The position numbers were made by a program, and so were the translations under genes. The notes beneath the pieces were generated by a model. It saw only the letters and a program-made list of their open reading frames with translations, did no database searches and had not been told where the DNA came from. From Branchiostoma floridae (Eukaryota; Chordata; Leptocardii; Amphioxiformes; Branchiostomatidae): a stretch of 64,000 nucleotides of DNA. The DNA lies in assembly GCF_000003815.2 (NCBI RefSeq), contig NC_049990.1:4341803-4405802 (forward strand), written 5' to 3'. Positions 18,281-58,200 of this stretch are shown piece after piece (position 1 is the first letter of the stretch; every line of letters starts with the position of its first letter).

Positions 18281-18319
18281 ACGCTTCTTTTTTCTTTCAG
18301 CTTCAAGGTGACATACGTA

Positions 18320-21175: not shown

Positions 21176-21680
21176 ATTACTGGGGAGGGAACCCAAAACA
21201 CGCCATGGCGTGCGTCCCTCCCCCTACCCACACTGCCTAACACCTTCTGGCCATGGGAGCTGACAGTAGGCAGGGTAGGGTACCCGTAACACACCACGGC
21301 GTGCGTCCCTCCCCCTCGTCACACTACCTAACACTTACTGGCCAGGGGAGACCCCAGGGGAGGGGCTATGTAACACATCACGGCGTGCGTCCCTCCCCCT
21401 ACCCACACTGCCTAACACCTTCTGGCCATGGGAGCTGACAGTAGGCAGGGCAGGGTACCCGTAACACACCACGGCGTGCGTCCCTCTCCCTCGTCACACT
21501 ACCTTACAGTTACTGGCCAGGGGAGACCCCAGGGGAGGGGCTATGTAACGTATCACGGCGTGCGTCCCTCCCCCTACCCACACTGCCTCTACTGGCCATG
21601 GGAGATCTAGATTACTGGGGAGGGAACATCCCACGGCGCCTCCCCCTCCTCACACTGCATAACACCTACTAGCTATGTGA
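20740..21680 (+). repeat. Minisatellite forming the receptor tail and its 3' UTR
   Basis: Units of about 75-95 bp with CACACCACGGCGTGCGTCCC, CTACCCACACTGCCTAACAC and CTACTGGCCATGGGAGATAC run from inside the coding region to about 21660, roughly eleven copies. The receptor stop TAG (21173) is within one copy, in GAGATCTAGATTACTGGGG. The same frame stays open for a further ~40 codons after it. GATCTAGATTACTGGGG recurs at 21605. Confidence 0.88.
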
Positions 21681-22697: not shown

Positions 22698-22832
22698 GGT
22701 GTAGGACCCATGTGTGTGAGCTCCGCAAACCTTCCGGAATTTTAAGCTAAAAGCAACAAATATTCTTTTGTATCAGCGTTCTAGCCATCGTCCTTGATTT
22801 TTCTGACTCTGTGCATGTGACAGTTGGTGAAA

Positions 22833-23594
22833 ATGGGCACACGGAAAAGGCGTGGGGCAACAACTAGACTCGAGTCAACAGGCGACTTTTCAGATAATGG
22901 CGACGATAAGGACCCACCCGACTTCGAATCGTTTGTCAGAGAGCAGTTCAGCAAACTGTTGGACGGCCAAAAGTCCTTACGTGCGGAGGTACGTGCTCTT
23001 GAGGAAAACCTGGAGAAAAATGTACAGATATTGGAGGATCGTTTGGGCAAAACTGAAGCAAAAACAAACGAGATACAGAAGAAACTGCGTGAAATCGACG
23101 AGGGCGCTAATCGAATCAACGAACGGGTGCAGTCAGCGACCGAGGGAATCGAAGAACTACAACGGAAATGCAATAAACTGGAACGTTTTTCGCGTAGAAA
23201 CAACATCAGGATCATCGGTAGAAAGGTGGAGAAGGGGGAGAACTGTCTAATCACCGTAAGGAAGATCCTGCACGAGAAATTCGGACGGACGGATATCAAA
23301 ATTGAGCGAGCCCACCCTGACGGCCCCCCCAACAAACATGGCGGGGACAAGACACCCCAGCACATTCTTTTCAAAGTGAACAGCTACCAGGACAAGATTC
23401 ACCTGATGAAAGCCTCGCGGGAGCAGCTCAAGAACGAGAACTATTACTTCACTGATGACTTGACAGCCGTTGACTTACAAGAAAAACGTAAGTGGAAAGA
23501 CAAAGTGAAACAAGCCTATGACAATGGAAAAAAGTATCGGTTTTTCAACGGTTTTTGGAGAGATACTCAAGGAAAAGCTGTGAGCTTTACTTAA
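22833..23594 (+). CDS. LINE ORF1 protein (coiled-coil RNA-binding)
   Basis: 253 residues from ATG 22833 (MGTRKRRGAT); the frame extends 9 bases further only through TTG and GTG. A basic N-terminus is followed by a long heptad-rich coiled coil (RAEVRALEENLEKNVQILED, then KTNEIQKKLREI). Next comes an RRM-like segment starting RRNNIRIIG and a C-terminal region with HILFKVNSYQDKIHLMKA and YYFTDDLT. This is the L1 ORF1p plan: trimeric coiled coil, RRM and C-terminal domain. Its role is to coat the element RNA. No stop or frameshift. Confidence 0.85.
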   Translation: MGTRKRRGATTRLESTGDFSDNGDDKDPPDFESFVREQFSKLLDGQKSLRAEVRALEENLEKNVQILEDRLGKTEAKTNEIQKKLREIDEGANRINERVQSATEGIEELQRKCNKLERFSRRNNIRIIGRKVEKGENCLITVRKILHEKFGRTDIKIERAHPDGPPNKHGGDKTPQHILFKVNSYQDKIHLMKASREQLKNENYYFTDDLTAVDLQEKRKWKDKVKQAYDNGKKYRFFNGFWRDTQGKAVSFT

Positions 23595-24491
23595 TGTCTC
23601 AGTAATGATTATTTCAGGATGAGATGAGAATGTCTGAATGCTATCTAGATAGCCTTGGCTCGATTCTCATAATTTAATTATTATTTGATATGTTATTGTA
23701 TTGTTATCGTCTGATTTTCCTTTAGTTACAGGGCTTGCCTTGATTATCTTCTGTTACCATTGATCCATATATTGACTCTATGACAATTTGATTTGAAGGT
23801 TTGCCCTGTGAAGTTTCATTATGTTATTCTTATGTTGTAGTGCCTGCTATTAATTCCTTTTGATGTTGTTACCAACTCCGAAGCGTGAGTAGTGAATGAA
23901 TGAATACCACAGTAACCTTGTCTCGATTTCCTAAGATGGCCAATTTTTTTTTTTTTTTTTTTTTTCTACTGTTGCGCTTTACTAGATATATAATTACAGG
24001 GCTTGACTTGTTTTTTTGTTATTGATCCACATACCAAAATTGATCCGTATATGACATTTTGATCTGAAAGGTTAGCCCTGTCTTGAAAATTCTCGGTTAA
24101 AATGTAAATGAATATATTAAAATGTAAAATAGGAGCCAATCATGCAAATTATGTTAACGGCCGACCGACGGATGGTCAGGGCGCCTGAAACCCTGTGTAT
24201 ATGTCTTTGTTTCATCATTTCTGGGAACCATCCTAGCACGTTATATGCTGTTAGATTTTGTTTAGTTTCTAAGGTGGTTGACACCCTACCTTTGTTTGTT
24301 AACTGTGTTTCCGTTATCTTGAGTTATATCTGTATGTGTGTTTATGTTCAATATCTGGCTTACTCATGTAACCCAGTGGATTTTTGTGCATGTTCGGATA
24401 CCACGGATCCTGAAATTGTTATATATATGTATGTCGTAATCAAGTACTCCCATAGTTACACATTACTTTTTATGAACGAAAAACCTCTGAC
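23595..24491 (+). other. Long inter-ORF spacer of the LINE
   Basis: About 900 bp separate ORF1 and ORF2, long for an L1-type element. It holds a run of 22 T (near 23944-23965). It also has an imperfect direct repeat: TTACAGGGCTTGCCTTGATT...GATTTGAAGGTTTGCCCTGT (about 23725-23810) resembles TTACAGGGCTTGACTTGTTT...GATCTGAAAGGTTAGCCCTG (about 23993-24080). Confidence 0.7.
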
Positions 24492-27400
24492 ATGAGTACT
24501 ACCATTGGTTCATATAACGTAAATGGCATTGCAAACCCACGTAAAAGACGTGAAGTGTTTAACTGGCTTAAAGAAAAAAATTATGACATAATTTGTTTAC
24601 AAGAAACCCATTCATCACCAGAACACGAAATGGCCTGGAAACAAGATTGGCATGGGGAAGTCTTTTTTAATCACGGAACAACAAACCAACGGGGAGTGTT
24701 GATTCTATGCAAGGAAAACTTAAAATTTACTATCAATAACTGTTCTAGAGATGATGATGGGCGACTGTTGATAATAGACATTTCTATAAATGACTTGAAT
24801 TTCTGTATTTGCAATTTGTACGCACCAAATAGGGACAACCCCGACTTTTTTGACAATATTGAAAAATTGATGTCTAACTATAATCATGGAAATTTTATAA
24901 TCGTTGGGGATTTCAATACAGTCCAGAACGCCAAATTAGATAGAGCCGGACGAAACCCAGCGGTCTATCACCCAAATGCACAGCAGAAAATTAATGATCT
25001 TATGTTTGCTTTAGAATTGGTTGATGTATGGCGATATAAACATCCTAATACAGTTAGATTCACATGGAGAAGGGGGAAACAAGCCAGCCGTTTGGATTAT
25101 TTTCTGGTTTCTTTTTCGCTTTTAGCAGATATTTCAAATGTTAGAATTTTGGACCGGCTCAAGTCCGATCACAAGATTATTTCACTAAATATACAAACCG
25201 TTAAACACCCACGTGGGAGGAATTATTGGAAATTCAACCAAACATTGCTGACAGATGTAAATTTTCAGCAGAAAACTGAAGAATTCATTGATGAGTTTTT
25301 TAGATTCAATATTGGTACGAGTGACCCGTTAACGGTATGGGATACTTTTAAGTGTTGTTTTAGAGGACACACAATCAGTTTTGCCTCCAAGAAACGAAAA
25401 GAATTTATCTCAAAAGAAAATGATATCAAAAAACATATCGAACAGTTAAACGAAAAATTAGATGAGACAGATGAGCCTTCACAAACTGTACTTGACGAAC
25501 TTAGCTCACTACAGAGTGAATTAGAGATACTATATGAACAGAAATCAGATCAGATGTTCTATAAACAGAGAGCTGATTGGATGGAATTTTCTGACAGGTG
25601 TACGAAACAATTTCTTGATCTTGGTCGACGAAATTCCTCTAAGAAAAATGTTATAAATTTGAAAACAACAGACGGAGAAAATATACAGGACCCTAAACGG
25701 GCTATAGAAGAAATCAAGTCATTTTACCATTCTCTTTATTCCTTTAGCGATCCCCCTAAAGACTTAGATGATGATAATTGTGAACCCTTTTTTCCAGGTG
25801 ACCTACATGTACATTTAGATACTGAACAGAAAAACTCCTGTGAGGGCCTTATTACAGAAAAAGAGCTATGGGAAGCCATAGATAGTTTTAAAGAAGGCAA
25901 AACTCCAGGAATCGACGGCATTCCAGTCGAGGTTTATAAGACTTTTTTTCGAAATTTAAAGAATCCAATGCTACATTTATTTAATCATGCATATGAAAGT
26001 GGGAACTTATCAGATTCACAGAAAGAAGGATTAATTACTTTATTATTGAAACAAGATTCGAATGGAGAATATAAAGATCCGACTGCTCTTAATAATTGGC
26101 GACCCTTATCATTGTTATGTTGCGACGTACGTATTTTGTCAAAAGTTATCTCACTTAGGATAAGAAAAGTTATTTCTAATTTGATACATAAAGATCAATG
26201 TGGTTTTTTGCAAAACAGATTTATAGGGGAAAACATATGTCAAATAACTGAAATAATACAACTCTATGAAAAAGAAAAATTGCCTGGTATGATCTTTATA
26301 GCTGATTTTGAAAAAGCATTCGATAAACTAAGGTGGGATTTTATGTTTAGGGCTTTGCGGTTTTTTGGATTTGGAGAATCATTTATACGCTGGGTTTCGG
26401 TACTCTATAAGGACATTACTAGCAAAGTAATAAATAATGGTTATATTTCAACTCCATTCAAGCTGTCTCGTGGAGTACGACAAGGGTGTCCCCTCTCACC
26501 GTATCTGTTTATTTTATGCGTTGAATTGCTTGCCGTGAAGATAAGATCCAATAACAATATAAAGGGAATTACATTGCACGAAACAGAAATTAAGGTATCC
26601 CAATTTGCAGACGATTCAAATTTTCCACTACAGCCAACTTTAACATCACTCCTAGCACTGACAAAAGACCTCAACAATTTTTCAGAAATTTCTGGTTTAG
26701 ATCCAAATTATAGTAAGTGTAAAATATTAAGAATAGGAACGCTAAGGAATACCCATTTCACTTTGCCATGTAACCTCCCAGTTCAATGGACAGATGGACC
26801 AGTTAAAATGCTTGGAGTTGGGATCACAGGTGACACAAACAAACTTACGAAAAACTATGAAGATCGATTAATTAAAATTGACAGAACCCTTCTGCCATGG
26901 AAAATGATTCCAATGTCCCTATACGGAAAGGTCACTCTCATTAATACCCTTGTTGTGTCGCAATTTACTCACTTATTTATGTCATTACCATCCCCAGAAA
27001 AATCATTTTTCCAAAGATATGAGCAGAAAGTTTTTAGATTTATTTGGAATGGTAAACCTGAAAAAATTAAACGTAAAGTTATTTACAATACATATGATAA
27101 GGGTGGTTTAGGATTGATACATCTACCCACATTCGATCGTACACGCAAAGCTTCTTGGGTTCCGAGAATGTTTTGTCAGCACAACTCAAATCGCAAGCCT
27201 CTTTTAGATACTTCTTCTGTGGTATTCAGCAGACATCTTTACCCATTTTTACAACTGTCTTTAGATGATATAACTTCTATGCGACCACTTTATACCATTA
27301 GTCCTTTCTTTAAAGACGTCTTAAAGGCGTGGTTGTCCCTACAATATAAGCCTCCTGAAACATACAAAGATATACAAAATCAAATTATTTGGTGCAACTC

Positions 27401-28286
27401 GAATATCCTTGTAGAAAGTAAACCTATAGCTTTAGAAACTCCAATGTCATGTGGGATGATTCATATCAATGATATACTAGACCTTGATGGCAAATTATTG
27501 TCATATGATGATGTTATTAAAAAATTCGGTAAAGTTATTGGCAGAATGGGTTACAATAGTATAGTCTCCGCAATTCCAAATGATTGGAAAAAGGAACTAC
27601 TTAAACATTCCCCAACCGTAGGTCCAATTATACCATCTGCAGCCCACTACATATGGCTAAAAACATGTCGAATTCATAAAAAGACATATTCGTTCTTCCT
27701 ACAGAAAAACAATATAGCAATGTCCCCTACGAATATTCAGTCTTATTGGGAAGATGAATTTAATGTACCTCTCCCATGGCATCACATTTTCAAGTTAATT
27801 TATAAAACAACGATTTCACCCAGATTAAGAATACTTCAATACAAAATAGTGCATAAAACGTTGGCAACAAGAAAAATGTTGCATCGGTGGAAAATTGCTG
27901 ATAGTCCATTGTGTGTTCACTGTAAACTTGAAGAAGAAACAATACGACATATTTTCTGGGAATGCCCCAGAGTTCATGAGTTGTGGACAAAAACACAAAA
28001 ATGGCTAGAATCAATTTTTCTCCAAAAGTATAATTTTGATGCGATGAATGTGATAATGGGAGAGTTTAGGTTAGACCATCCACCAATTTTAAACATGATA
28101 ATCCTACTTGCCAAAAACTTTATAATGCACAACAACCAGCAACATCTCTCTATGAAGCAATTTATGAATATGATAAAAACCCATGAACATATAGAATACA
28201 TCATTGCTGTAAGAAAACAAAAGCTGAATTATCATTTAAAAAAATGGGAGACACTTCGCTTAGCTCTGTTTCCTACTGTCCCTTGA
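24492..28286 (+). CDS. LINE ORF2: APE endonuclease and reverse transcriptase
   Basis: 1264 residues, no interruption. The N-terminal AP-endonuclease-like domain has YNVNG, LQETH, IVGDFNTV and KSDHKII. The reverse transcriptase follows with KTPGIDGIPVEVY, NWRPLSLL, DQCGFLQNR, ADFEKAFDKLRWDF, GVRQGCPLSPYLF and the catalytic QFADD (codons near 26603-26614). The C-terminus has a CCHC-type knuckle, CVHCKLEEETIRHIFWEC. All expected catalytic residues that I can check are present, so the protein could be active. It nicks target DNA and primes reverse transcription of the element RNA. Confidence 0.93.
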   Translation: MSTTIGSYNVNGIANPRKRREVFNWLKEKNYDIICLQETHSSPEHEMAWKQDWHGEVFFNHGTTNQRGVLILCKENLKFTINNCSRDDDGRLLIIDISINDLNFCICNLYAPNRDNPDFFDNIEKLMSNYNHGNFIIVGDFNTVQNAKLDRAGRNPAVYHPNAQQKINDLMFALELVDVWRYKHPNTVRFTWRRGKQASRLDYFLVSFSLLADISNVRILDRLKSDHKIISLNIQTVKHPRGRNYWKFNQTLLTDVNFQQKTEEFIDEFFRFNIGTSDPLTVWDTFKCCFRGHTISFASKKRKEFISKENDIKKHIEQLNEKLDETDEPSQTVLDELSSLQSELEILYEQKSDQMFYKQRADWMEFSDRCTKQFLDLGRRNSSKKNVINLKTTDGENIQDPKRAIEEIKSFYHSLYSFSDPPKDLDDDNCEPFFPGDLHVHLDTEQKNSCEGLITEKELWEAIDSFKEGKTPGIDGIPVEVYKTFFRNLKNPMLHLFNHAYESGNLSDSQKEGLITLLLKQDSNGEYKDPTALNNWRPLSLLCCDVRILSKVISLRIRKVISNLIHKDQCGFLQNRFIGENICQITEIIQLYEKEKLPGMIFIADFEKAFDKLRWDFMFRALRFFGFGESFIRWVSVLYKDITSKVINNGYISTPFKLSRGVRQGCPLSPYLFILCVELLAVKIRSNNNIKGITLHETEIKVSQFADDSNFPLQPTLTSLLALTKDLNNFSEISGLDPNYSKCKILRIGTLRNTHFTLPCNLPVQWTDGPVKMLGVGITGDTNKLTKNYEDRLIKIDRTLLPWKMIPMSLYGKVTLINTLVVSQFTHLFMSLPSPEKSFFQRYEQKVFRFIWNGKPEKIKRKVIYNTYDKGGLGLIHLPTFDRTRKASWVPRMFCQHNSNRKPLLDTSSVVFSRHLYPFLQLSLDDITSMRPLYTISPFFKDVLKAWLSLQYKPPETYKDIQNQIIWCNSNILVESKPIALETPMSCGMIHINDILDLDGKLLSYDDVIKKFGKVIGRMGYNSIVSAIPNDWKKELLKHSPTVGPIIPSAAHYIWLKTCRIHKKTYSFFLQKNNIAMSPTNIQSYWEDEFNVPLPWHHIFKLIYKTTISPRLRILQYKIVHKTLATRKMLHRWKIADSPLCVHCKLEEETIRHIFWECPRVHELWTKTQKWLESIFLQKYNFDAMNVIMGEFRLDHPPILNMIILLAKNFIMHNNQQHLSMKQFMNMIKTHEHIEYIIAVRKQKLNYHLKKWETLRLALFPTVP

Positions 28287-32618: not shown

Positions 32619-35600
32619 ATGAGACACCTTGACAAGGAGCCAACAAGGTCTATCTTGCTGACAAACTTGCCTCGAGTGGCAGGAAGCTGTCAAGTTTCAC
32701 AGCTCAATGCAGAGATATGTGCCGCGCTTACAGAAGGTAAGATGTACTTTTTGTCAACTCAGCTCAATTTTCTATAATGTAAGTAGTCGACACGTACTTT
32801 TACTTAACCTTCTCCTTCACCTAACCGTGAGAATTGGATGCCAAATTAAACGGCTTCTCCTTCTTCAGAGTGCTAAAAACTGAAATGTTAGCAGTGGTGT
32901 AAACTAAACGCTTAGCGCGCGTGTGCCAAAAAATGAGTTACGCCCAGGGGCGGCCTACACTGTCACTGGCTACAGCCACAGTACAGGTTTACCTTTTCAA
33001 CGTTCTAGCAAAGGTAATGATCTCAAACAGTTTGGGCGCTAAAACAGGAGGCTGCGAACTAGAACTAGAGGGAAAATGGATGTAATGTAACGTATAGGAA
33101 CTGTACTACATGGTGTAAAATGTCATGTAGAACATTGTGTTTCCTAAACATGTGTAACCCATAGGTGTTTTTCACGCTTGAAAAAAACTTCATGTGTGGG
33201 TGCCATGTTGGATGACGGGTCTGCACTTCCGAGTGTGTTGTTTTTCTATCCATACTAGCGTGTCACAATGGGGCCAGACCGGGCAACGAAAAGTGCGAAA
33301 TAAAAGACAACAAAAACACGAATGGGACCAAACTGATTCAACAGCATGCCTTGTGCAACTATGACAGTCACTGTTAAACTATGATTTTTCATTTCCACGA
33401 ACAGCGCAGCTGGGCTCTGCATAGGAAATGTGAGTTATGAATTAGGTCTAACCAAGAAGCTCCTTGGTCTAACGGAGGGTCTGCACGGGAGGGGCTCCAA
33501 GCTCTGACAACGCTTTACGTAAAGCGTTGTCAGAGCTCGGAGCCAACGGTTACATTCAAGAAGGCTGACAGCACTTTGAATAACGCTTAATTTAGAACGG
33601 CTAAAATGCCATTGCCTGAATTTTGATGGGCAAGATTTTGTGACATTCAAAAGGGTATTAAGGCGATGCCCCTCCCCTTAACATATTTTCAGCATTTCAA
33701 GGGCTGAAGGCACGTGAAGTCACAAGGGAAGTCTGGGAAAATTTTGAAACCTTGACCCTTTAAAACGCCATTTCCTGCATTTTTATTGGCAAATTTTGCT
33801 GACAGACTACAACATTTCTACAAGGTTTTTGAGGGCGACGCCCCCAACATATTTTTACCTGCAGCTGGGAAATTTTGAAATGTTGACCCTCTGAAATGAC
33901 ATTTCCTACATTATGAGGGGTGAAATTTGCTGATAGGCTAATTTTAATGAAATTTTTGTTTGAAAAAATTCACAAGGGTTGTGGAAGTATAAAGATTGTA
34001 CTTGTAGAAGTGACACTTGTGGTACCCAGGACTGTAGAAGTGAAAGTAGTTGGATAGCTGTAAAAGTGGCACCAATATGGAAGCCATGAATATAGTCACT
34101 AACTTTGTTGGTGATACCAGTCTACAACACTTTTACTACACTAGTGCACTTCTTGAACATAGGAATGAATGCTGTGATAGTCATACCATGATTAGTTCTT
34201 GTAATTCTTGTTACAATGTTTATGGTGTCTATTTTGAAAACGTAGCCATCTTATTTTTTGTACCCATCTTGTTTTTTTGCCCTCTTACTATTTTTGCAAT
34301 CTGAAGAGGACGCCATCCATAAAATTGACATGCTGTTGCCTTAGTAATGCTTGAACTTCAGTTGAAGTTCAGACTCATTTTGTGTCCAAATTCTGATAGA
34401 TGTTCTTTAGTCCCATATCAAAGATAAAATAAACATTTATCTTTTAATTACAGCAACTTTGGGAAAGGTTATAAACCTCAGGTACAGCCGTCCAAAGGTA
34501 TGTAAAACTTTGATTTCTTTAAGCAACAGATTAATACTCTCATACTTGACAATTTATTTTCTTAAATTTAACCACAGTGGCATTTTTAAAGAGGATGAAT
34601 CAGGTGATATACATAAATTATGTTTTAAATGTGGTAATACCTTAATAGTACAAATGTAGTAGTAGTAGGTAGTATCCATTTCTTTATTCTTAATGGTAGA
34701 TTATATTGATTGCAGGCATGTGCTGTTGTGACATTTTCCAAGAGGATGTCTGTGGTGAAGGCCTTGCAGAAAGGCAGACAGGTGGGTCTTCAATTGAAAA
34801 AGACGGATATCGCATTTAACTTAAGGATTGCACCCATGCATATATGGCCAAATTTGGTCACAACAAAAGTCATTGGGAGAAGGTTCTTTACATAAGCTAA
34901 TTGCACCTTACACATAATTCTAATTTGCTTTTGTTACATTTTGACATGGTAAACATTTATGTTTATTGGATGATGCTATTCTTGTTCCAGATGATAAGAA
35001 AATGTTGTGTTTTGGTGTCTTATTATTATGGTTATAAGCGAAAATGATTATGATAACTATAATTCAATTTTAAATTTTGAAAATTTTGTTTTCAAAACTT
35101 ATCACTCAATATAGCAGCTTCAAGAAATGTTATTCCATATCACCCTAGGTACCAGCCTGACTGTGGGTAGGATCGCCCAAAGGCTAGAGGGCGATCTGAA
35201 CCAAGGGAGGGCTGGGACAGAGGGTGACACGGAATTCACTGTGTTGTATTTCATTATGTCATACCCACCTGAGAAAACACATATTTCGATGCGAAATGCA
35301 CCAGAAGTTGAGAAAATGTGTCCTTGAACAAAAGATTGTAACAACAGCAATTCTATCGTCCGAATCCGGTTTCAAATTTTCAACTGTGCCGTATTCGACC
35401 CGTCCTAAATAGTTCGATTTACTCGAAGGAAGCCTGTGTGATACAACTTAGAACCTGTGTGATATGAAAAGTTATCACACGGTCCGGAACACCCGTATCG
35501 AACGTTTTCGCGTCACAGGTATGACATAAAGTCTTTCATCAACCGGTCCAAAACACCCATATCAAATGTTATCGGGGCCCAGGTATACTATAAATGTGGA

Positions 35601-38600
35601 AATTGCAAAGTGAAGGTTCTATTCAGTATTTCAAACTCTTTCGTTTGCAGGGCAAAATTTTTGTCTGTGGCACCAGAGTGAAGTTGTTCAGAACACCAGA
35701 TCCTGTCCTTGTGCAAAATACGGAGAAAAGACAACATGGTCGTGAGATGTACTTCACAAAGGCAGAACAGCAAAATGCAAGGCAAGAAACAACAGAGTCC
35801 AGTCTCTGTGATGACCCTCCAGAGACTGACAGCTACATGTACCTCCCATTCCACAAGCATCCCTACAGACCACCGCACATTTCTGAAGATATCTGTTCCA
35901 GAATGGTTGTGCCGAAGTCAAAAAGGTCTCACAGGAAGAGCTTATTTTCCTCAAAGATGACTTCTAAATGCCATTCATGGAAGGACTCTTCGGCAAAAGC
36001 AGCTCACAGGAAGAAGACAAGTGCAATGCAGAGAGGACATACAAAAGCTGCTGCTACGACAAAAACTGTGAGAACACTTCCTAAGAGGTGGGCAATTCTG
36101 GATCTTTCATCTGTTGACACAAAAATCATGAAAATTTACCTTTTGAAATCTTTTCATGTTTCTATCAAATCAAAAGAAACATATTAATCTCATCCAGGTC
36201 AGTACATAGTTAATAGCTACTCTCCCTTTGCAAGAAATACAATGTGATACATGTACATGTACATCACATACATTTTATGTTTTTTGTCACAGGTTCACAG
36301 TCTACACCCTGGGATTGTCGACCCTGATTCCAGTTCAAGTGAAGAGTAACGACACCATTGCAGTTCTGAAAGCAGCTATACAACAGAAGGAGGGGATCAA
36401 AATACCCGTAAAAGCAACTTTGTGGTGCAAGGGATACAAGGTAAAACATTATTTGCCTACAGAACTAATAATTCCTGGTCAAACTCAAAGAAAGTTTCAA
36501 CATAAATGCCAATGAGTCAGATCAACTGACTTGTACCAGAGTAGTCTACATGTAGATCCAGAGTGGTAGTGACACTGTACCATGATCATCAAAAACTAGT
36601 AAGATTATTATGTTGTCCAAGTTACTTCATGTTTTTCGAATTTACAAATCAAGGATTTTCTTCACAACATCATAGTTGGTGGACCTCCTAACCTTGGATG
36701 ACCAGTTGGTTGGACCAGACAGCAATGTGGCATTACATATCAGCCTTCAGGGAGGATCTGACAAGGGTATTATGATTTCTACTTAAAAAAATAAAATCTG
36801 ATGCATCTAGTGGGTTTGCAGAAAAAGGCATCAAGGCATAACTTCATTCTTATAACTGCCTCATGATGATGAAAACACTGCACTTAAAAAAAAGAAAGAA
36901 AAGCAGGTTATTCAGTTTCTTAAGTAATTTCAATATTTGTTTCATGTTTATTGTGTACCTTCATTAATGTAACAGGTTATTCAATTAGTTCTTTTCTTTT
37001 AATTTAACAGACCAGGTTACAGAAAAGGAGCTACAAAAGCTTGCCAAGAACCTGGGTGCAGAATGGGAAAGCCTGGCCATTTACCTGGACATGAAGAAGG
37101 CTGATGTGGACAAGTTCAAGGCTGACAACCCCTACCAGACAGAGCAGCAGATATTCTCCATGCTGGTGAGGTGGAAGGAGACACAAGGGACCAGAGCAAC
37201 TAAAGAACAACTGAAGGAGAAACTGAGGGAAGCTGGGGTAGAGGAAGAAAAGTTCGGTAAGTTAGACTGGTCTTGTCATTATTATGTATCATAATAAAAG
37301 ATACATCATTGTGATGAGGCTTGATAGTTCTGCATTATGGAATAGTATGATACATTAATGATGATTTTGTAAAAACAGATTAGCATTTGGAATTCATGAT
37401 TACATTTCTCATTTCATAAAACCCACAAACTGCACAATCTCTACTATCAATGTTTTTTGTGCAAGTTTAGGTTGGCTTATAGTTGATGTAAGTAGCACAA
37501 TTACATTTAAAAAACGTGACCATTATGCCAATATAGCATCATTTATCTTAAAAAGCAATTCAGAACAAAATGAGGTTTCAAGTTTTCCCATTCATTCAAC
37601 CATCCTTACTGTTAAATGATTTTGTTGTATTCAGTCAAAATGAAATCATCTTATTTTTCAGGTATCCCTCCAAGGAAAGGGTCTGAAGAATGGTTGGTTG
37701 ACACTCTACTCCAGCTGTTACCTGAAGAAGGCAAGGCTTTGTCTGTTAATGAACTTGCTAATAGGTTCAATCAAAACACGAATTCAAAGGGTAATAGTAA
37801 GAAATTCAAAGCTTATGGGTGTGGTCCCCTTAAAGCTTTTCTAGAGGCTCATCCGAAACAGTTCACAATCAAAGAGGAAAAACAGGGTGGTGTGTGTCGT
37901 GTCACAGCTGTTAAACAGAAGAAGATAGTGAAACAAAAGAAGGCTTTTCAAAATCAGCAAAACTTGAATGAAGATACATGTGACCAGTCTACATTACCTA
38001 AAGCTGGGTTTGTTCAGTATGACGAAAATGCAGGAGCAGTGGCACAAAACATTGTTACTCTTCCTGGTTCTGACCTTATGCAAATTAAAGGAATAGTGCA
38101 TGATTATAGTATGAACAAAGAGAGTAATGCTTCCCTCTCAAGCTTTGATAACACTGACCCCAAGGCTGCACTAGCATTTTCAAATTTTACTGGAACCGAT
38201 ACCGGAGAAAGAATGTATGAAGGAGCTGCATCCAACAGTATTCTTTCACCAGCTCCTGATCAGAAAGCTGAACAGACCAATTTTTCATTAGGTCCACTGC
38301 CGTCTCATACACAAGCAAAAGTACAAGCTAGTGCAGAGAGTCAGGTGCATGTAGATGTACACTTGCATTTACATGACCAGAATCTCCCAAGGCAGCCACT
38401 CGATTGGACAACTGACCATGTTTGCCAATGGCTCCATGGACTTCAACTCAATAGGGACAAGTTACCAGGATACATCGAAGCTTTCAAAAAAGGGGACATT
38501 TATGGAGAAGTACTCACTACACTATCAGTTGCTGGTGAAGAGGGCAGGATTACCCTAGGTGTCTCCCCCAGGGATTGGGCAAAGATTGTCTCCAATATAG

Positions 38601-41600
38601 AAGAACTGTTTGCTGACGAAGAGCCAACTTCAGAACCAGAAAATTTTAGTGCTTTTGCTTTACATGCTCAGCGCTACCCACCCCAGCTGCAGGAACCTCC
38701 CCAGCAACATTACCCATTACGGTATCCATACCACATCACACCAACTACATATATTGGTGCTACTGCTTCTAATGACACTATTTCAGGATATAGCGAGAAT
38801 ACAGCAACACTGACTCACACCATAAGTCCTTTAACATCTGCTGACGAAATATGGGATTCAGTTATGGAAAGTGTAGATCACTTTAAAACTAGTGCCAGAG
38901 CGTACTGTTTGGTTGTTTACAATGACCAACAAGATGATTCTGCTCACATAGAAGCACTTGCAGATGTCGCTTGGACTAAAGTCTTTGACTTTGATCCAAA
39001 CAGCCGTGAATCTTGCACCTTTTCACGCTGTGAAGTTCCTCTACGAAACCAAAGAAGTTTGTACATCACCACTTGTCGAGATAATGCAAAAAGCCTTCAT
39101 GACAAAGCAACAGAATGGTTCTTTCCTATAGATGATCTTAATGTAGGAGAGAGAGAGTGGAAAAAGTCTGTTGGCGAAATAATAAATTCTCACATTGAAA
39201 AGCTAGCTGATTTCTGCTGTCGAAGGAGGCCTTTGACAGTGGTTGTGATGTGGTACGGATCCTACAAGTGCCTTCCCCATCTGAATCGTCTCCTTGACAA
39301 AATGGATGAAAGGATCACAGATGGTGTGAAATTCGTTTTCTGTCTCAGAGAAAAGCCAAATGATGAAACCACTTTGCAAAAGTTCAATGAGATGTGCTCG
39401 GAGCTTGAAGTGAGTGATGCCGACATTCACATTGTACCACTTGCAACCATGTGTCAGCAATTACAACATCAAGCGAGTAACAAAATCCCCTCTAGAACTA
39501 GATACATGCTTCCTGCCCTTACAGAGAGGGTTCTGACTAAGGTAGAAATTGAGCAAAAAGATGTCGCTTGGTTGGCAGAGGAACTGGATGTTTTGTATTT
39601 AGAGCAGGACCATTCAGTTTCTTTCCAGGGAAATAGAAATGATCTTGGAAGAGAATTCTACCACGGGGGTACCATTTCCTGGTTTGAACTCCAGTTAGGA
39701 ACATATGCTGTGGACAGGGACATTCAATTTGCACTTGAGGCAAGCATCAAAACTGTCCTCAATCGTCGCAAATCTGCCATAAAGACCCTGTATCATGCCC
39801 CTGGCGCTGGTGGCACCACATTGGCCAGAAGGGTTCTGTGGGACATACATCTGGAAAAGATTTGCCCTTGTGCTTTTGTCACATCCTTGGCACATGACAA
39901 TGATGCTATACATAAAAGAATCAAATGGTTGCACAACAAAACCAGTCTTCCTGTTTTTGTCGTTGAAGACAGTCGGATCTCAAAGACAGAGTCAAGGTTG
40001 ATAAGGGAAACGTTTGAAACATGCAGGCAGTTCACTCCATTGGTCATTCTTGATGTACAAAGATATTCTTCCAAGATAGACAAAGATAAAGAGGGTGACA
40101 GGTTCTGGCTGAAAGGAGAGGTAAGCATTCCTGAAGCAATAAGACTAACTGAAGTGTTCTCAAGAAATTGCCCGGAAAAGAAAGATGATTTCGAAAAACT
40201 AGTTGATGATGCAAAGGCACACAAAAACCCACGTGTCTTTGAGTTCGGTCTGACAGCTTTTGAGTATGAGTTTCGTGGTGTTCAGTCATATGTTTCTGGC
40301 TATCTGAAACTAGATGGTCACTTCAATTTGTTGAAGGACTTATCAGATTGGAGATTAGCTGTAGGTTTCTTGTCTCTGACCTACTACTATGGCCAAGCTG
40401 CAATACCAGGCCAATTCTTTGCCAACATCTTAGGCATTAGGAAGAAAGATACAGTTGATTTTGGCAGCCTGCCATTTGAGGCTAAGAAGTTCATAAACAA
40501 AGAAGATGGCAACTATTGGAGAATTTCTATCCATGCATTAGCTAAGGAGATCTTAGAGCAGATTCTTTGCCCTGTACCACACAGCAGGGAGTCAAATGTG
40601 AGACTAAGTTCATCAGCTACAAAATGTCTTAAAGAGTTTACAGCAATGTTCATCATAGAGGCTGGAAGTGGAAAGGAACGGTTGTGCCAAGACCTTATCA
40701 ATGTGGTGATAGCAACCTTCTTTTCAAGAGACAACAATGAAATTTTGATGATTGGTAGAACAAAACGACATCTGTCTTCACTTATACTTGACATTCCATC
40801 TCAGCGGCCTCTTTACACAGAGAGGTATGCCATATTCCAACTTCTAGTAGAATACTTTCCTCGAAACCCTCACTGCCTTGCACACCTTGCACGGTTTTGT
40901 GCATTAGTACGTGAAGAATACCCGGTTGCAAAGAAGTATATTGAGAAAGCAATACAGATTCGTGAAGAAGAAAGACAGCAGTACCATCATTATATGGCTG
41001 CATCATTTGAGGAAGGTATTGAGGAAGACAGTCAGGGTGCAGACACTCCTTTGAGTCGTATTTATAACATGAAGGGATGTATTTACCAAGCTGAAATGTC
41101 CAGCAACATAGGGCGCCTTGGCAGTGTTGCGACTTGTGAAGAACATATAGATGTTAATGAAGTCATCACAGAAGCAGTAGCACTTGCAAAGACAGCATCT
41201 ACAGCTTTTGCCAAGTGCAGGGAGTACTACAAGAAAGGCCACGAAGATTCGTTTGGCTATGTCCCCGACATCAAATTGCGGCTGAAACTCATTGAGTTTA
41301 TCAAAAAGAACTTTGGTGATTATGAAACATATGTTGGGTCTGAAAGTGCAGATGAGTACATAAAAGACTTGCTGTGGGAAGTAGATTCTCTGATCAGGGA
41401 GTGTTATGAGAAAGTTTTTACACTTCCTCAGGAATTTCATACATCTGTTGACTGGTACTGCCTTCTTTGTAAAGATGCTGCACTAGCAATCCAAAACTGG
41501 ACAGATGTGTCGTCCATACGGGGTAGAAGAGGGAAGCTAGCAGCATACAGAATGCTCAACCAAAGTAGATCAGCTGTCAAAAACATCTGGTACTGGGACA

Positions 41601-42421
41601 ACATGAGAAAATCTGACATAGAAGACATTATTACTCTCTATGAGCAAAATTTCCAGGAAGTATTTGAGAAAGGCCTTGATTACAACCTTGACAATGACAT
41701 GAAAGACTGGTTGTTAGCAATTAGGCATGAACTAATTGAAAGGCCCTACACCATTGAGGAAGTCCTTCTTAGGGTGAGGCAGTGGTATGACAGGCGTAAG
41801 TCACCGTATTCTGTATACTACTTGTATGTTCTAACAGCTGTCCTAGCTATCGGTACAAAGGGTCAAACTGGGTCAAGAGGGAGCTTTGCCGAAATGAAGC
41901 GGCTTCAGCCTTTACTGAAACGAGCTTCTCTAAGCATTGGCAGGCCTAAACTGTGCCGTGAGTATGTTACTTCATCCAGCTGTGGAATAAAACGTCTTGG
42001 CCACAATCAAGAACATAGGAACTGGGACCCCGACTCACGTAATTGGAAGTTCAAAGGAGAGCTAGACAGTTTCACTGGAACCATACGAGAATGCCACTCT
42101 AATGCTAAAGGTACCATTGAAATGGACATGGGAAGGGTCGCAGACTTTGATTGCATTAAGGTGTTTTTCGTGCCAGCTGCTTCAGGCTTCTGGGATAGAA
42201 GATATGTGAATACCCGTGTTCAGTTCTTGCTTGGGTTTAGCTTCGAGTCTGGCCCTGAGGCATTTAATGTGACAGAGCTAAAACGATTTAAATGCACAAC
42301 ATGTGGAAAAACTAATGAAAGGGCAACAGATGATGCAGTACCATTTGTCTACTGTAGCTGTGGCTTCCCAATAAATGTAAGAAGGCAAGTTGATGATTAT
42401 GCACATGCTTATTCATATTGA
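32619..42421 (+). CDS. SAMD9-like STAND protein with RRM, UBL, death and LOTUS-like domains
   Basis: Eight exons join in phase: 32619-32736, 34454-34497, 34716-34781, 35651-36087, 36293-36440, 36676-36766, 37011-37256, 37662-42421, about 1,969 codons. Domains in order (approximate residues): RRM 10-97 (SILLTNLP, VINLRYSRP, ACAVVTFS, IFVCGTRVKL); basic linker; ubiquitin-like fold 222-300 (FTVYTLGLSTLIPVQVK, LVDLLTLDDQL); death domain 303-383 (LQKLAKNLGAEWESLAIYL); LOTUS/OST-HTH-like 390-465 (LLPEEGKALSVNELANRF, PLKAFLEAHP); SAM 628-690 (WTTDHVCQWLHGL). The SAMD9-type core follows: SIR2-like region, P-loop HAPGAGGTTLARR near 1097 without the usual lysine, Walker-B-like LVILDVQRY, a helical TPR-like region, then an OB-like region with VQFLLGFSFESGPEAF. 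The end has CTTCG and CSCG, a likely zinc ribbon. SAMD9 proteins restrict viruses and translation in vertebrates; the role here is inferred. No ortholog with this full order is known to me. Confidence 0.82.
33467..33935. mobile_element. Copy of the AACGCTT repeat family (intron 1 of the SAMD9-like gene)
   Basis: GGAGGGTCTGCACGGGAGGG, TAACGCTTAATTTAGAACGG and several modules of the type CCATTTCCTGCATTTTTATTGGCAAATTTTGC match the element at 52508-53748. The right end is not clear. Confidence 0.55.
33493..33544. repeat. 52-bp palindrome with no loop
   Basis: GGCTCCAAGCTCTGACAACG CTTTAC is followed directly by GTAAAGCGTTGTCAGAGCTC GGAGCC, its reverse complement with one mismatch. It sits inside the repeat copy at 33467-33935. 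Confidence 0.88.
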
Positions 42422-52200: not shown

Positions 52201-55200
52201 GAAGACACGCCAGCAGAGAGGTAAGAAGAATCTTAGGGGGCCCTGAGATATTCCAAGGGTTTAAAGTAGGAGCAGATTAAATGGGTACATGCAAGCAGAG
52301 AGGTAAGAAAAAAAATTTTCAGAAATATTCTGAGGATTTAAAAAGGGGTAGTTGAAATGAGGACATGTGATTTAGCTTAGTCTTTTGTCTTTAGTAATGG
52401 TGAACTGGCAGGAAAAAAAATCAGTGTTCACCTTGCAGTTGGTAGCTGCAGGAGTCATTCTTTGCTTCGCCATGCTCACAGTAGACTTGATTCTCCATCC
52501 TTGTGTGCTATTAGAGGGTCTGCATGGGGGGGTCTTGGTAATGCTTAACGGTAAATTCAGGAGGCCGGTAACGCTTAACGGTAAATTCAGGAGGTCCGGT
52601 AACGCTTAACGGTAAATTCAGGAGGGGTTACAAAGCATAACAGTAACATTGACATTCGTTCCTATTTGTACAACGCTAGACTAGGTTATCTCGATGGTTC
52701 TGACTAATGGTATTGTGAGAAGGAAAAGGTGCCCAGAACCCAGATGAATGACAGGGACAATGTCCGCTGTCTCAATGACATTTGCTTCCCTGCGTCAGTG
52801 TTCCCACCAGAGGAGGCGGAAGCAAATTTCTTATAGGGGTGTTTAAACTATTGCTGACAAAATTTTCAGCACTTGGGGCGTCGCAGGCGTGACGCATCCT
52901 TGGGGGATCCGGGGGTACGCTCCCCCGGGATTTTTTTTAAAATCATGACCCTCTGAAATGCTATTTCCTGCATTTTCCGGCAAATTTTGCCGACAGAAGA
53001 ATGAACTTTTCATCAAAATTACACATGGTTGTACTTGGAGCTAAGACCTCCGGCCTCCGACATATTTTTATCCTTTCGAGCTCGGAAGGCATGAGACATT
53101 GCAAGATAAGTCCGTGGAAATATAAAAATCTGGACCGTCATTTCCTGCATTTTGACAAATTTTGCTGGCCAACGAAGTTAAATCAAAGTTTTTTTGGGGG
53201 CGACGACCAACGCTCCAAACATATTTTCGCCATGTCGTCGTGAACGCCAAAACCGTCGCAAGGGAGCTCCGGAGAAACCTCATTTTATGCATTCGAGGAG
53301 TAAATTTTGCCTGAAACTACGCTAAGTTTGACTCTGATGAAATCTGTATGAGTGAAAAGGTTTTTGGGGCGACGCTTCCGCAACATATATTTACCCGAAG
53401 CGGCCTGGTGGAGGCTTGGAAGCGGCCGGGAGTCTCGGAGAAATTTTGAAATTTGGACCTTTTGAAACACCATTTCCGGCACTTTCAGGGGCGCTATTTG
53501 GTATTTGACTTTGTGGGTATAACTTGTTACGAAGAATTTCTTGGTAACGCTTAACGGTGAATTCGGGATTACAAATAACGATAGGTAGGCAATAACGATT
53601 AACGTTGAATTAAAACGACCAATAACGCTTCACGAAGAATATACCGATAACGTTTAACGTTGAATTAGAGCTGATCAGTAACGATTAACGGTGAATTAAA
53701 ATGGCTCGTAACGCTTAACGGAAAAAGGCATGCAGGCCCTCCTATTAGGGAATAAAATCTTGCTTCTTGTTCTCTGTTCCTCCAGAATCCGAGCTGGAGA
53801 TGAAGAGAGAAGGTCTGGCTCAGGCTAAGCTGGACCTGGGGGAGAGGATGAAGGGGCACATAGAGAAGAGGTGAGGAATGAAACTATGGCTGATGAGAGT
53901 GTGGTCAGGTAAAAATAAACATAGAAACACAAAAAAAAACAACTATGAAATAAGAGTGGCAATGAAAAAGCATTGCCTTGGTGACGATAATATTAATTGT
54001 CTTTGTTATATATGGTTTCTACACTGGTCCTGTCCCTGGTGCTGAACGTACATTCACACTGAGTATCCTCCTACTGACTTCACACTGGTCCTGTCCATGG
54101 TGCTGAACGCACATTCACACTGATTATCCTACTACTGACTTCACCCTGGTCCTGTCCCTGGTGCTGAACGTACATTCACACTGATCACCCGCCTACTGAC
54201 TTCACACTGGTCCTGTCCCTGGTGCTGAATGCACATTCACACTGATTTTCCCTCCTACTGATGTCTCAATGGTCCTATTCTTCATGCTGAAAGTATTTGT
54301 CTATGACCCTTTTCACAATGTATCATGTTTCCCCAACAGTACACCAAAAGTAATTCAACTGCATTTAAGATTTGAATTGTTTATTTGTATATGTATGTGA
54401 TGTATTGTACAATGTGTATGATATATATCCAGTGACCCGAAATATAATACAAGAATCTTATAGGAGACACATCTTGTTAGCGCCTTTATTATTAGGACGT
54501 GTTATGACAGGATGATTTCTTGACAGTTTTGACAGCTTCATCATATTTTTGTTTAAGGTATACAAGAACTTGATTTGCTACCCAGGCTAGGTAGAAGTGC
54601 ATGTATCAAACAAAGACACCCTACATGTAAATCAGTGAGAATGCAACATGCGTAACAGGTGTAACCATGGACTGAAAGAAAAACCCCTAACAGTACGGTC
54701 ACTAAGACTTAAATGACTAGAAGTCTAGAACTCTACTAGTTCAATTTGCATCCTTCCGTTCAAAGCTCATATTATAATACATGTACAATAAATAATATGT
54801 CATATTTTTAATACTGACTGTAATACCAAAACAATGATGTTACACAAAATACTACACTAAATGGAGATATTCAAACATTCTTGGCATTTCTAGTGTAATG
54901 TGGTTGTTTAGAAATATGTACAATAATTTTATTGCTTAAGTTTACTGAAGAAGCATCATTTTCCTGAAGATTTTGTAATGTGTAAAAATGCTGTTTCCTT
55001 TATTCCACATCTTAATGATCTACTATCATGTCATTTTTAGAGAGGTGAAAAGTGATGTTGAGTCTACAATGCAGGCACACACTTCACTAAGCGTTATACA
55101 ATGTGCAACATATGCTTCATCACAGCCCAGAGGACCCTCTTTAACAGTGCTGCTCTGATGTACTCAAGGGCTGGTTCAATTTGCTTTATCAATAGATGAC

Positions 55201-58200
55201 TTTTGTCTTGAGGATACACTTGTCTTGCCATAGCCAAAGCCTCAGTACATTTACTGATTGCTGTTTTGTAATCACCAATATTGCACAAGGCCAAAGCTAG
55301 GCTAGTTATGGATATAGCAATGTGAGGATGAGCTGCACTCTTTCCGTACATTTTGCTCATCATCTGCAGTGCCTGTTCATAACAGCTGATGGCTTTTCTA
55401 CAGTCACCTAATCGGTACCTGGCAACTCCCAGATGGTGGAGTATGGCGGCAGTGTGTGGATGGGCTGTAGTGTCACCATAGATTTTTGTACACATCTGTT
55501 GTGCCTCTTCAAGGTAGCTGATAGCTTTTGTGTGATTACCCAGACTATCCCATGCATTTCCCAGGTTGGTGAGTAAAGTAACAATTCTAGGATGTTCTGT
55601 TCTCTCATCATAGATACTTCTGTACATCTGCAGGGCCTGATCAAGGTAGCTGATAGCTTTCCAGTAATCACCTTGATGCTGCCAGACTACCCCCAGGTTG
55701 TGTAGTGACTTCGCAATGTCAGGATGTGCTGTGTCTTGACCATAGATACTCCTGTACATCTTAAGTGCCTGTTCATAGTAGCCAATTGCTTTCCTGTAAT
55801 CACCCAGTTCACTCCAGGCATCTCCCAGATTGGTCAAGAAAGTGGCAATGTCGGTATGAACTGCAGTCTCACCGTGGATCCTCACACCCATCTGCAGTGC
55901 CTGTTCAAGGAAGCAGATTGCTCTATTATGATCACCTTGGCATATGTAAGCTATCCCCTGGTTGTATAGCAAATTCATTATGTCAGGATGTGCTGTACTC
56001 TCACCATAGACACTCCTGAACATCTGCATTGCCTGCTCAAAGTGGTCAATTGCTGTCCTGTGATATTCTTGAGAGAAATATGCGGATCCCATGTTGCTAA
56101 GTGTGGTGGCAATTTCAGTATGTGCTGTGCTCTTACCATAGATACTCATACGCATCTGCAGTGCCTGTTCGAGATAGCTAATTGCTCTCCTACGATTTCC
56201 TTGACAGTGTAAGGCTGTTCCCAGCTCATGAAGGGATCTTGCAATGTCAGGATGTGCTGTGCTTTGGCCATAGACACTCCTGAACATTTCAAACGCCTGT
56301 TCAAGGTAGCCAACAGCTTTATTTTTATCCCCCAGATGACTCCATGCTAACCCCAAACAGTGGAGTGAACTTGCATATTTTGGATGTGCTGTACTCTCAC
56401 CATAGACAGTTTTTGTCATCTGCAGTGCCTGTTCATGGTAGCTGATAGCTTTCCTGTGATCACCTTGATACTGCAAGCCTTCGCCCACGTTGCTTAGTAA
56501 CCTTGCTATGTCACGATGTGCTGTATCTTGACCATGGATACTCCTATACATCTGCAGTGCCTGTTCATGGTAGCCAACTGCTTTCCTGTGATCACCCAGT
56601 TCACTCCAGGCATCTCCCAGATTGGTCAAGAAAGTGGCAATGTCGGTATGAACTGCAGTCTCACCATGGATCCTAACACCCATCTCCAGTGCCTGGTCAA
56701 GGAAGCTGATTGCTCTACTTTGATCACCATGGCAGATGTAAGCAATCCCCAGGATGTGAAGTGATTGCATTATGTTAGGATGTGCTATACTCTCACCATA
56801 GATAGTCCTGTTCATCTGCAGTGCCTGTTCATGGTAGCTGATAGCTTTCCTGTGATCACCTTGATACTGCCAGCCCTTGCCCACATTGCTTAGTAACCTT
56901 GCTATGTCAGGATGTGCTGTATCTTGACCATGGATACTCCTGTACATCTGAAGTGCCTGTTCATTGTAGCTGATAGCTCTCATATGATCCCCTTGATGGA
57001 CATAGGCTGTTCCCAAGCCGCTTAATAACTTGGCAATTTCGGCATGTGCTGCACTTCTACCATATACACCTCTGTACATTTGCAATGCCTGTTCTAAGTA
57101 GCTGATAGCTTTACTGTAATCACCTTGGATGACATGGACACACCCAAGGTAGATTAGTGATCTGGCAATGTCTGGATGAGCTGTACTCTCACCATGGATA
57201 CTCCTGTACATCTCCAGTGCCTGTTCAAGGTAACTGATTGCTCTCTTGCAATCACCCTTTTCACCGTAAGTTGCGCCCAGGTTGTACAGTGTAGTAGCAA
57301 TCTCAGGATGTGCTGTACTTTCACCGTAGATATGCCTTTCATAGTGCAGTGCACACATAAGGTAGTTAATTGCTTTCATGGGATCACCAAGGGCACTCCA
57401 GATTCCTGACAGGTCATTGAATGATCTGGCAATGTCTGGATGTGCTGTATCTTGACCGTACATTCCCCTCCACATCTGTAGTGCCACTTCGCAGTACCTG
57501 ATTGCTTTCCTATTATCACCTAGATGGTGCCAAGCTTGTCCCAGGTAGTGAAGAGAGGTGGCTATGTCAGGATGTAGTGTATCCCAGCCATAGAGTGTCC
57601 TGTCCATCTGCAGTGCCTGTTCAAAGTAGCTGATAGCTTTCCTGTGATCACCCAACCTAATCAACCAAAATATTCCTATACTGTGATAAAGCTGCAATGT
57701 TGGGACTAACTGTGGTCTGACCATAGATATCTCTCATCATCTGCAGTGCCTGCTCATAGTAGCTGATTGATTTCCTGAGAACACCCAGGCCTTCAAAGAT
57801 CATCCCCAGGCAGTGTAGAGATACAGCAATCCCAACAGGATATTGTGCTCTTGTCTCTTCATTCTTATACATCTGCAGTGCCTGTTCAACATAGCTGATT
57901 GCTTTCTTGTAATGTCCCAGGCTTTTCCATGTCATACCCAGCCTGAGCAGTTGTTCTGCAATGGCAGGATGTGCTGTATTCTTACCAAAGACCTTCCTGT
58001 ACAACTTAAGTGCATTTTCAGTATAACTGATTGCTTGTTGGTTATAACCCAGACAGACCCAAGCTTCAGCAAGCTGTTCAAACATACCAATCTCATCAAG
58101 AAAACTGGACACTGTCCATTTCTTAGTTTTCAAATTTGTAGCTCTTCTTGTTAGAGCCTTGCTTAAGTGGCTGACAGCTAATCCATATTGGCACAACTCT

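What the first reader, a model, noticed from the sequence alone, without database searches (positions are those of the whole stretch)
32619..42421. SAMD9-like STAND protein with added RRM, ubiquitin-like, death and LOTUS-like domains
Eight exons join in phase into one protein. It carries an RNA-binding RRM, a ubiquitin-like fold, a death domain, a wHTH of LOTUS/OST type and a SAM domain, followed by the SIR2-like/P-loop/TPR/OB core of SAMD9. Vertebrate SAMD9 proteins start with SAM and lack the first four modules. The mix of nucleic-acid sensing and death-fold signalling suggests an innate immune effector in one polypeptide. I know of no described protein with this order. Exons and motifs are seen; the immune role is inference.
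Basis: partly seen in the sequence, partly recalled or inferred. Interest (0 to 1): 0.88.

Follow-up and report, generated by a model that had tools for sequence, protein, structure and literature searches.

The report
SAMD9-family gene with swapped front end
A gene in what looks like a lancelet genome joins the core of the antiviral protein SAMD9 to five different front-end modules in place of SAMD9's tRNA-cutting enzyme, which suggests that it signals through partner proteins instead of cutting tRNA itself.

Summary
Eight GT-AG exons (32619-42421, +) can be joined in phase into 1969 codons. The last exon is a SAMD9-family core: a family profile hits only SAMD9 chains in the PDB (6 of 6 at E<=0.001, best 1.8e-40), with the SAMD9-type GGT P-loop. 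Death (7.5e-12), ubiquitin-like (2.4e-7) and SAM (2.7e-5) pass Pfam cut-offs on isolated segments. LOTUS-like and RRM-like parts do not, but beat all 150 shuffles in profile comparison. The same 513-Mb genome (probably Branchiostoma floridae) shows one other core copy, with a LOTUS-like start, no SAM, and an unidentified segment where the tRNase would sit. The Death exon is closest to Death exons near CARD, DED and LRR-Roc-COR exons. Best reading: an RNA-contacting STAND platform that recruits death-fold adaptors. Death-fused invertebrate SAMD9 relatives were already described; this module order was not found in print. Single transcript, folds and immune role are unproven.

The parts
32619..32736 (+). 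exon 1: start codon, RRM-like beta1/alpha1 (ILLTNLP)
   Evidence: donor AAG|GTAAGA; A at -3 of the ATG
34454..34497 (+). exon 2: RRM-like, middle
   Evidence: phase kept
34716..34781 (+). exon 3: RRM-like beta3/alpha2 (ACAVVTF)
   Evidence: hhalign to RRM profile covers exons 2-3
35651..36087 (+). exon 4: end of RRM-like domain, then a basic low-complexity tail
   Evidence: weak donor GAG|GTGGGC; frame stays open to about 36187
36293..36440 (+). exon 5: first part of ubiquitin-like domain
   Evidence: Pfam ubiquitin 2.4e-7 across the exon 5-6 junction
36676..36766 (+). exon 6: end of ubiquitin-like domain, closing in ...LQ-Gly-Gly-Ser (Gly-Gly codons 36751-36756)
37011..37256 (+). exon 7: Death domain, best solved match CRADD/RAIDD
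   Evidence: Pfam 7.5e-12; PDB 8.5e-11, THO complex subunit 1 next at 2.1e-8
37662..42421 (+). exon 8: LOTUS-like, SAM, SAMD9-type core, stop
37682..37870 (+). LOTUS/OST-HTH-like winged helix
38396..38617 (+). SAM domain
38618..38836 (+). 73-residue Pro/Gln-rich linker in the place where SAMD9 has its roughly 230-aa tRNase
   Evidence: no tRNase hit
38837..39540 (+). SIR2-like region (approximate limits)
   Evidence: collinear with SAMD9
39551..40045 (+). STAND P-loop region; Walker A HAPGAGGTT at 39794-39820, Walker B about 39947
40046..42015 (+). rest of the STAND/TPR region (approximate limits)
   Evidence: collinear with SAMD9 up to chain residue 1020
42020..42268 (+). OB-fold region (approximate limits)
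   Evidence: weak second domain (i-Evalue 0.53); conserved with paralog
42293..42364 (+). C-terminal zinc-ribbon-like CxxC...CxC beyond the end of the SAMD9 chain
   Evidence: sequence; CxxC...CxxC in paralog; chain end

Best explanation
It is one SAMD9-family STAND gene whose front end was rebuilt. Shown by sequence: the SIR2-like/P-loop/TPR core is kept (OB weakly), the SAMD9 tRNase is not found and has no room before the SIR2-like part, and RRM-like, ubiquitin-like, Death, LOTUS-like and SAM modules precede the core. Inferred: in the resting state the core is autoinhibited as proposed for SAMD9. A trigger sensed by the C-terminal half, with RNA contact through LOTUS/OB/zinc ribbon, opens it. 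The STAND part and the SAM polymerise, and the clustered Death domains recruit a CARD-Death or DED-Death adaptor that activates a caspase. So it signals through an adaptor, as APAF-1 or the PIDDosome do (recalled), and not by cleaving tRNA as vertebrate SAMD9 does.
For: In-phase eight-exon model. Core: SAMD9 is the only solved relative of the family profile at E<=0.001 (6 of 6 hits), with the family's GGT Walker A. tRNase: no hit and 73 residues of room. Death domain: best PDB match CRADD 8.5e-11; closest exons in the same genome (47 matches; 150 of 250 candidates scored) lie near CARD, DED and LRR-Roc-COR exons. LOTUS is shared with the only other core copy that the genome search found (2 matches, 4 candidates scored). 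That copy's last exon has no in-frame Met before its LOTUS and so must be spliced there, which supports the acceptor at 37662. Human SAMD9 tRNase = aa 156-385 (PMC13245274 passages; PMC12331169 introduction).
Against: No transcript. Exon 8 carries in-frame ATGs (37616, 37640) and could start its own gene. Donors of exons 4 and 6 are weak, and borders were chosen for phase. A codon-usage test had no power: the undoubted exon 8 itself scores 0.015 bits per codon. RRM and LOTUS are below Pfam cut-offs with low hhalign probabilities (12-13%). The Death domain's second best PDB match is THO complex subunit 1, which is not a caspase adaptor. The nearby DED is just under its Pfam cut-off (33.9 against 35.9). 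No binding, oligomer or caspase data exist. OB match to SAMD9 is weak. Neighbouring adaptors were read exon by exon, not as gene models. SAMD9's tRNase may be too diverged to detect: the paralog's segment in that place has no hit either.
Confidence: 0.5

Rival explanations
1. Two neighbouring genes: a small RRM (or RRM-UBL-Death) gene followed by a LOTUS-SAM-SAMD9 gene that starts inside exon 8.
For: In-frame ATGs at 37616 and 37640 just upstream of the exon 8 acceptor; exon 4 frame runs on to a stop; weak donors at exons 4 and 6.
Against: Exon 5's open frame has no Met and needs an upstream exon; the UBL hit spans exons 5-6; a phase-keeping path exists through all seven junctions; the paralog's last exon must be spliced at the matching place; exon 7 ends in GTAAGT.
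Confidence: 0.25
2. It works as SAMD9 does, cutting RNA or otherwise shutting down translation, through a nuclease not recognised here.
For: Core strongly SAMD9-like; rabbit SAMD9's minimal tRNase module includes the SIR2 region (PMC12331169 abstract).
Against: No tRNase-like hit, and no room for one between SAM and the SIR2-like part.
Confidence: 0.1
3. An RNA-granule scaffold rather than an immune effector: LOTUS, RRM and ubiquitin-like modules tether the STAND core to RNP granules.
For: OST-HTH proteins of other eukaryotes are fused to RRM and ubiquitin-system domains (PMC2848206 section 5); LOTUS domains of Oskar, TDRD5 and TDRD7 bind Vasa (PMC5458760, abstract in the listing).
Against: I know of no RNP-granule role of Death domains or SAMD9 cores (recalled).
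Confidence: 0.15

Closest known systems
Vertebrate SAMD9/SAMD9L (tRNase STAND proteins)
   Same: SIR2-like/P-loop (GGT)/TPR core, collinear, OB weakly; a SAM domain in front of the core
   Different: No tRNase/AlbA module found; SAM lies 73 residues before the SIR2-like part; added RRM-like, UBL, Death, LOTUS-like; C-terminal zinc-ribbon-like tail
Invertebrate SAMD9-family proteins with CARD/Death/Pyrin (Mekhedov et al. 2017, PMC5445408)
   Same: Death-superfamily domain in front of the SAMD9 core
   Different: That text has 0 mentions of RRM, ubiquitin, OST, LOTUS, HTH or Branchiostoma (its figure and supplements not seen) and limits SAM to vertebrates
Bacterial SAMD9-like STAND proteins (L001-L010: 8 Streptomyces, 1 Actinomadura, 1 Magnetococcales)
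   Same: SIR2-like/GGTT P-loop core; 21-24% identity in the 7 aligned
   Different: TCAD9 N-terminus in the two checked with Pfam, L004 and L005; wHTH-like C-terminus by eye in several actinobacterial ones, LOTUS identity not established
PIDD-RAIDD (PIDDosome) and APAF-1 (mechanism recalled)
   Same: Proposed logic: a platform clusters death folds to activate a caspase; Death domain closest to CRADD/RAIDD among solved chains
   Different: SAMD9-type core with variant P-loop; extra RNA-type modules; function untested

Membership tests
SAMD9 family | SIR2-like/P-loop/TPR core collinear with SAMD9 | tested here: met
   profile A4 against the PDB, 1.8e-40, 6 of 6 hits at E<=0.001 are SAMD9
SAMD9 family | Walker A with GGT/S in place of GKT/S | tested here: met
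   HAPGAGGTT at 39794; feature from PMC5445408
SAMD9 family | C-terminal OB fold | tested here: inconclusive
   second domain has i-Evalue 0.53; conserved with the paralog
SAMD9 family | AlbA_2/tRNase module before the SIR2-like part (lost in some members per PMC5445408) | tested here: not met
   no hit; 73-residue linker. The source allows loss, so this bars 'a tRNase SAMD9' but not family membership
SAMD9 family | tRNA-Phe cleavage | not testable with these tools
   needs an assay
Pfam nSTAND_NTPase5 | score above cut-off 34 | tested here: not met
   16.1 bits here, 19.5 in paralog, 36.3 in bacterial L004
Death domain | Pfam Death above cut-off | tested here: met
   45.7 bits against 22.6
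Ubiquitin-like | Pfam ubiquitin above cut-off; terminal Gly-Gly | tested here: met
   30.9 bits against 25.4; LQGG aligned with LRGG
SAM domain | Pfam SAM above cut-off | tested here: met
   SAM_PNT 24.5 against 24 on the isolated segment, over 20 residues; 18.7 (below) in the whole exon; SAM_1 and SAM_2 below; shuffles 0 of 150
LOTUS/OST-HTH | Pfam OST-HTH above cut-off | tested here: not met
   16.0 against 23.8; genome scan does not ring here; no LOTUS in the PDB searches. Profile comparison supports the fold, so LOTUS-like only
RRM | Pfam RRM match | tested here: not met
   no family at E up to 10; profile comparison supports the fold, so RRM-like only
RRM | aromatic RNP1/RNP2 residues for RNA binding (consensus recalled) | tested here: not met
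   ILLTNL and KACAVVTF have none at the usual places (read)

The most novel reading that the evidence does not exclude
A chordate SAMD9 relative that switched from built-in tRNA-cutting effector to adaptor-recruiting platform, an RNA-contacting PIDDosome-like complex. Its ubiquitin-like domain still ends in Gly-Gly followed by Ser, so a ubiquitin-processing protease could cut there and separate the RRM-UBL part (possibly conjugatable) from the Death-LOTUS-SAM-STAND part.
Probability: 0.15. Interest if true: 0.8.

Novelty: new variant of a known kind. Interest (0 to 1): 0.55.

Why it matters
A review describes SAMD9/9L as a departure among characterised eukaryotic STAND proteins, because their effector is built in, whereas the others recruit adaptors (PMC13245274 passages). 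A SAMD9 core without the tRNase and with a caspase-adaptor-type Death domain would show that the same core can run both modes, and that the slot in front of it is swapped (TCAD9 in the two bacteria checked, tRNase in mammals, adaptor and RNA modules here). Two copies in one genome make that directly testable.

Tried and rejected
Codon-usage support for exons 1-7: no power, because the undoubted exon 8 scores near zero; only exon 7 stood out (0 of 1000 null segments; exon 6 5%, the others 9-34%).

I took the paralog segment in front of its SIR2-like part for an AlbA/tRNase domain by eye. Four tests gave no support: PDB, Pfam, genome-wide SLFN_AlbA_2 scan (8 matches, none there), and profile comparison (103 of 120 shuffles reach the score, with only 4 partial AlbA sequences). 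I therefore call it unidentified. In the same call a 320-residue stretch of the window gene (LOTUS end to SIR2-like part) scored 14.9, reached by 10 of 120 shuffles.

I took the C-termini of bacterial relatives for LOTUS domains: one of five gave OST-HTH at 0.15, hhalign to A2 gave probability 1.2%, and 2 of 100 shuffles reach the score. Not claimed.

LOTUS profile against the PDB: no LOTUS among 5 hits at E up to 10; single sequence likewise, 9 hits. NCBIfam: no family for 4 of 4 proteins; PADLOC: 3 weak hits, all on the Death exon, none on the 4 other stretches. Scans with alignment A1 confirmed none of 140 pattern stretches in genome contigs and none of 61 in viral contigs; the P-loop pattern found 10 bacterial loci and 0 viral ones. 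RRM query of the own genome found only the gene itself (4 matches). UBL query: 13 matches, 2 of them the gene itself, 10 in two tandem arrays (polyubiquitin by inference), 1 weak. Rfam (gathering scores) and tRNA scans of the window were empty.
Full report
What is there. The gene lies on the + strand. Eight exons with GT-AG borders give an open frame of 1969 codons. The window is C12:4341803-4405802 of a 513-Mb genome in 431 contigs. No tool names the organism.

Joining of exons. A phase-keeping path runs through all seven junctions, but I chose the borders for that. The ubiquitin match runs across exons 5-6. Exon 5's open frame has no Met, so it needs an upstream exon. Exon 8 does have in-frame ATGs at 37616 and 37640, so a separate downstream gene cannot be excluded. 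Against that, the paralog's corresponding exon has no Met before its LOTUS and must be spliced at the matching place, and exon 7 ends in GTAAGT. Exon 4 and exon 6 donors are weak. Codon usage could not decide.

Modules. Death (7.5e-12), ubiquitin (2.4e-7) and SAM_PNT (2.7e-5, over 20 residues) pass their Pfam cut-offs on isolated segments; in the whole exon 8 the SAM match falls under the cut-off. LOTUS gives Egalitarian winged helix 1.6e-4 and OST-HTH 0.011, both below cut-off. A two-sequence profile (window and paralog) against 7 LOTUS exons of the same genome (of 10 matches) scores 20.2, probability 13%, with 0 of 150 column shuffles reaching it; the window sequence alone is reached by 2 of 150 and the paralog alone by 1 of 150. 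RRM gives no Pfam family, but scores 19.5 (probability 12%, 32 columns) against 12 RRM exons with 0 of 150 shuffles reaching it, while the four other window domains score 8.1 to 10.9. The 12 are those I kept of the 16 loci returned for 118 matches. Two of its three PDB hits, at E 0.3 and 1.4, are proteins with RRMs (Rbm22, NELF-E; domain content recalled). SAM scores 29.5 (probability 78%) against the 8 loci, 0 of 150. Genome-wide Pfam scans for SAM_2 (32 matches), OST-HTH (10) and RRM_1 (118; 150 of 263 candidates scored) did not ring at this gene; the RRM is split by introns there.

Core. Exon 8 alone finds SAMD9 in the PDB (six of eight hits at E up to 10, best 5.2e-9, P-loop region; the other two are Scm SAM domains at 0.6-0.7). 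The listing does not name the species of the chains. A profile of the window, the paralog and 7 of the 10 bacterial relatives (L001-L003, whose frames ran off the fetched stretch, were left out) finds six distinct PDB sequences at E<=0.001, all SAMD9, best 1.8e-40, collinear over chain residues 239-1020; the OB part is weak (i-Evalue 0.53). Walker A is HAPGAGGTT; its DNA pattern occurs once in the window and in none of 100 shuffles. The GGT variant is the one that Mekhedov et al. report for the family (PMC5445408). The Pfam model nSTAND_NTPase5 stays under its cut-off here (16.1 against 34).

The missing enzyme. In human SAMD9 residues 156-385, before SIR2, are the tRNase (PMC13245274 passages; PMC12331169 introduction). 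Here the SAM ends at residue 702 and the SIR2-like part starts at 776. The 73 residues between are Pro/Gln-rich. Pfam finds no AlbA and the PDB no SAMD9 tRNase there. The 175 residues between LOTUS and SAM read by eye as low-complexity.

The paralog. The search found the core twice in this genome (4 candidates scored). The other copy (C5:8401240-8406069, minus) is 36.7% identical over 1206 columns, begins with a LOTUS-like segment, lacks a recognisable SAM, and has a different segment before SIR2 that I could not identify. No match to the first 384 residues lies in the roughly 28 kb upstream of it (tblastn, E up to 5), a test that is blunt for short exons. Both proteins end in a zinc-ribbon-like tail beyond the point where the SAMD9 chain ends.

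Origin of the Death domain. Its best solved match is CRADD/RAIDD (8.5e-11); THO complex subunit 1 follows at 2.1e-8. Of 47 genome matches (150 of 250 candidates scored) four of the closest (48-55%) are at C5:12394001-12400252, with CARD and DED exons nearby (DED 33.9 bits against a cut-off of 35.9), and at C12:4572164, about 193 kb away, next to an LRR-Roc-COR exon. Capture from such a gene by exon shuffling is plausible. The UBL and RRM queries found no such relatives.

The ubiquitin-like domain ends in LQ-Gly-Gly, aligned with ubiquitin's LR-Gly-Gly, and a serine follows. Processing at this point is possible but untested.

Mechanism. I favour an adaptor-recruiting STAND platform. Shown: a phase-keeping architecture, core homology, no detectable tRNase, class of Death domain. 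Inferred: autoinhibition, oligomerisation, RNA contact, caspase outcome and immune role.

Literature. Death-superfamily fusions to SAMD9 cores are described, and SAM is said to be limited to vertebrates (PMC5445408, parts 1-2 of 4). That main text has no mention of RRM, ubiquitin, OST, LOTUS, HTH or Branchiostoma. Searches SAMD9+amphioxus (2 papers), SAMD9+Branchiostoma (2) and SAMD9 with module names (33, 20 listed) showed by title and abstract no paper on such a protein (listings only). OST-HTH fusions to RRM and ubiquitin-system domains are known in other eukaryotes (PMC2848206 section 5). Amphioxus death-fold shuffling is known (PMC2575513 passages), as is TRADD-N expansion (PMC8195603 passages); TRADD-N has an RRM-like fold and was not tested here as an alternative for the RRM-like domain.

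Verdict. A real, probably single gene with a new domain order in a known family: a new variant of a known kind.

Noticed in passing
L022 (C5:8405001-8415000), exon upstream of the paralog's last exon: Peptide HITVYNFGNIQGSQIGHGGTLHN looks by eye like a RHIM/amyloid signalling motif (motif recalled); Pfam finds no family.
   Followed up: partly
L025 (C1:5686287, minus): One open frame carries an RRM-like stretch (by eye) followed by a Schlafen AlbA_2 start.
   Followed up: no
L001-L010: Bacterial SAMD9-like proteins: TCAD9 N-terminus by Pfam in L004 and L005, the two checked, and by eye a wHTH-like C-terminus in several actinobacterial ones.
   Followed up: partly
window 55097-59891, minus: Two overlapping frames with many tandem 132-bp TPR units (NPHP3-like TPR hits).
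   Followed up: partly
window 18257-21172, plus: 972-codon LRR frame (LRR_8 8.5e-25) overlapping an 84-bp minisatellite at 20742-21606.
   Followed up: partly
window 22821-28283, plus: Non-LTR retrotransposon: coiled-coil ORF1-like frame and a 1276-codon frame with endonuclease, RT and zf-RVT.
   Followed up: partly
window 10513-11377: 128-bp tandem array, 6.7 copies, 93% matches; the unit looks as if it holds an exon end and a splice donor.
   Followed up: no
window 42293-42364: Zinc-ribbon-like tail shared with the paralog, beyond the end of the SAMD9 chain.
   Followed up: partly
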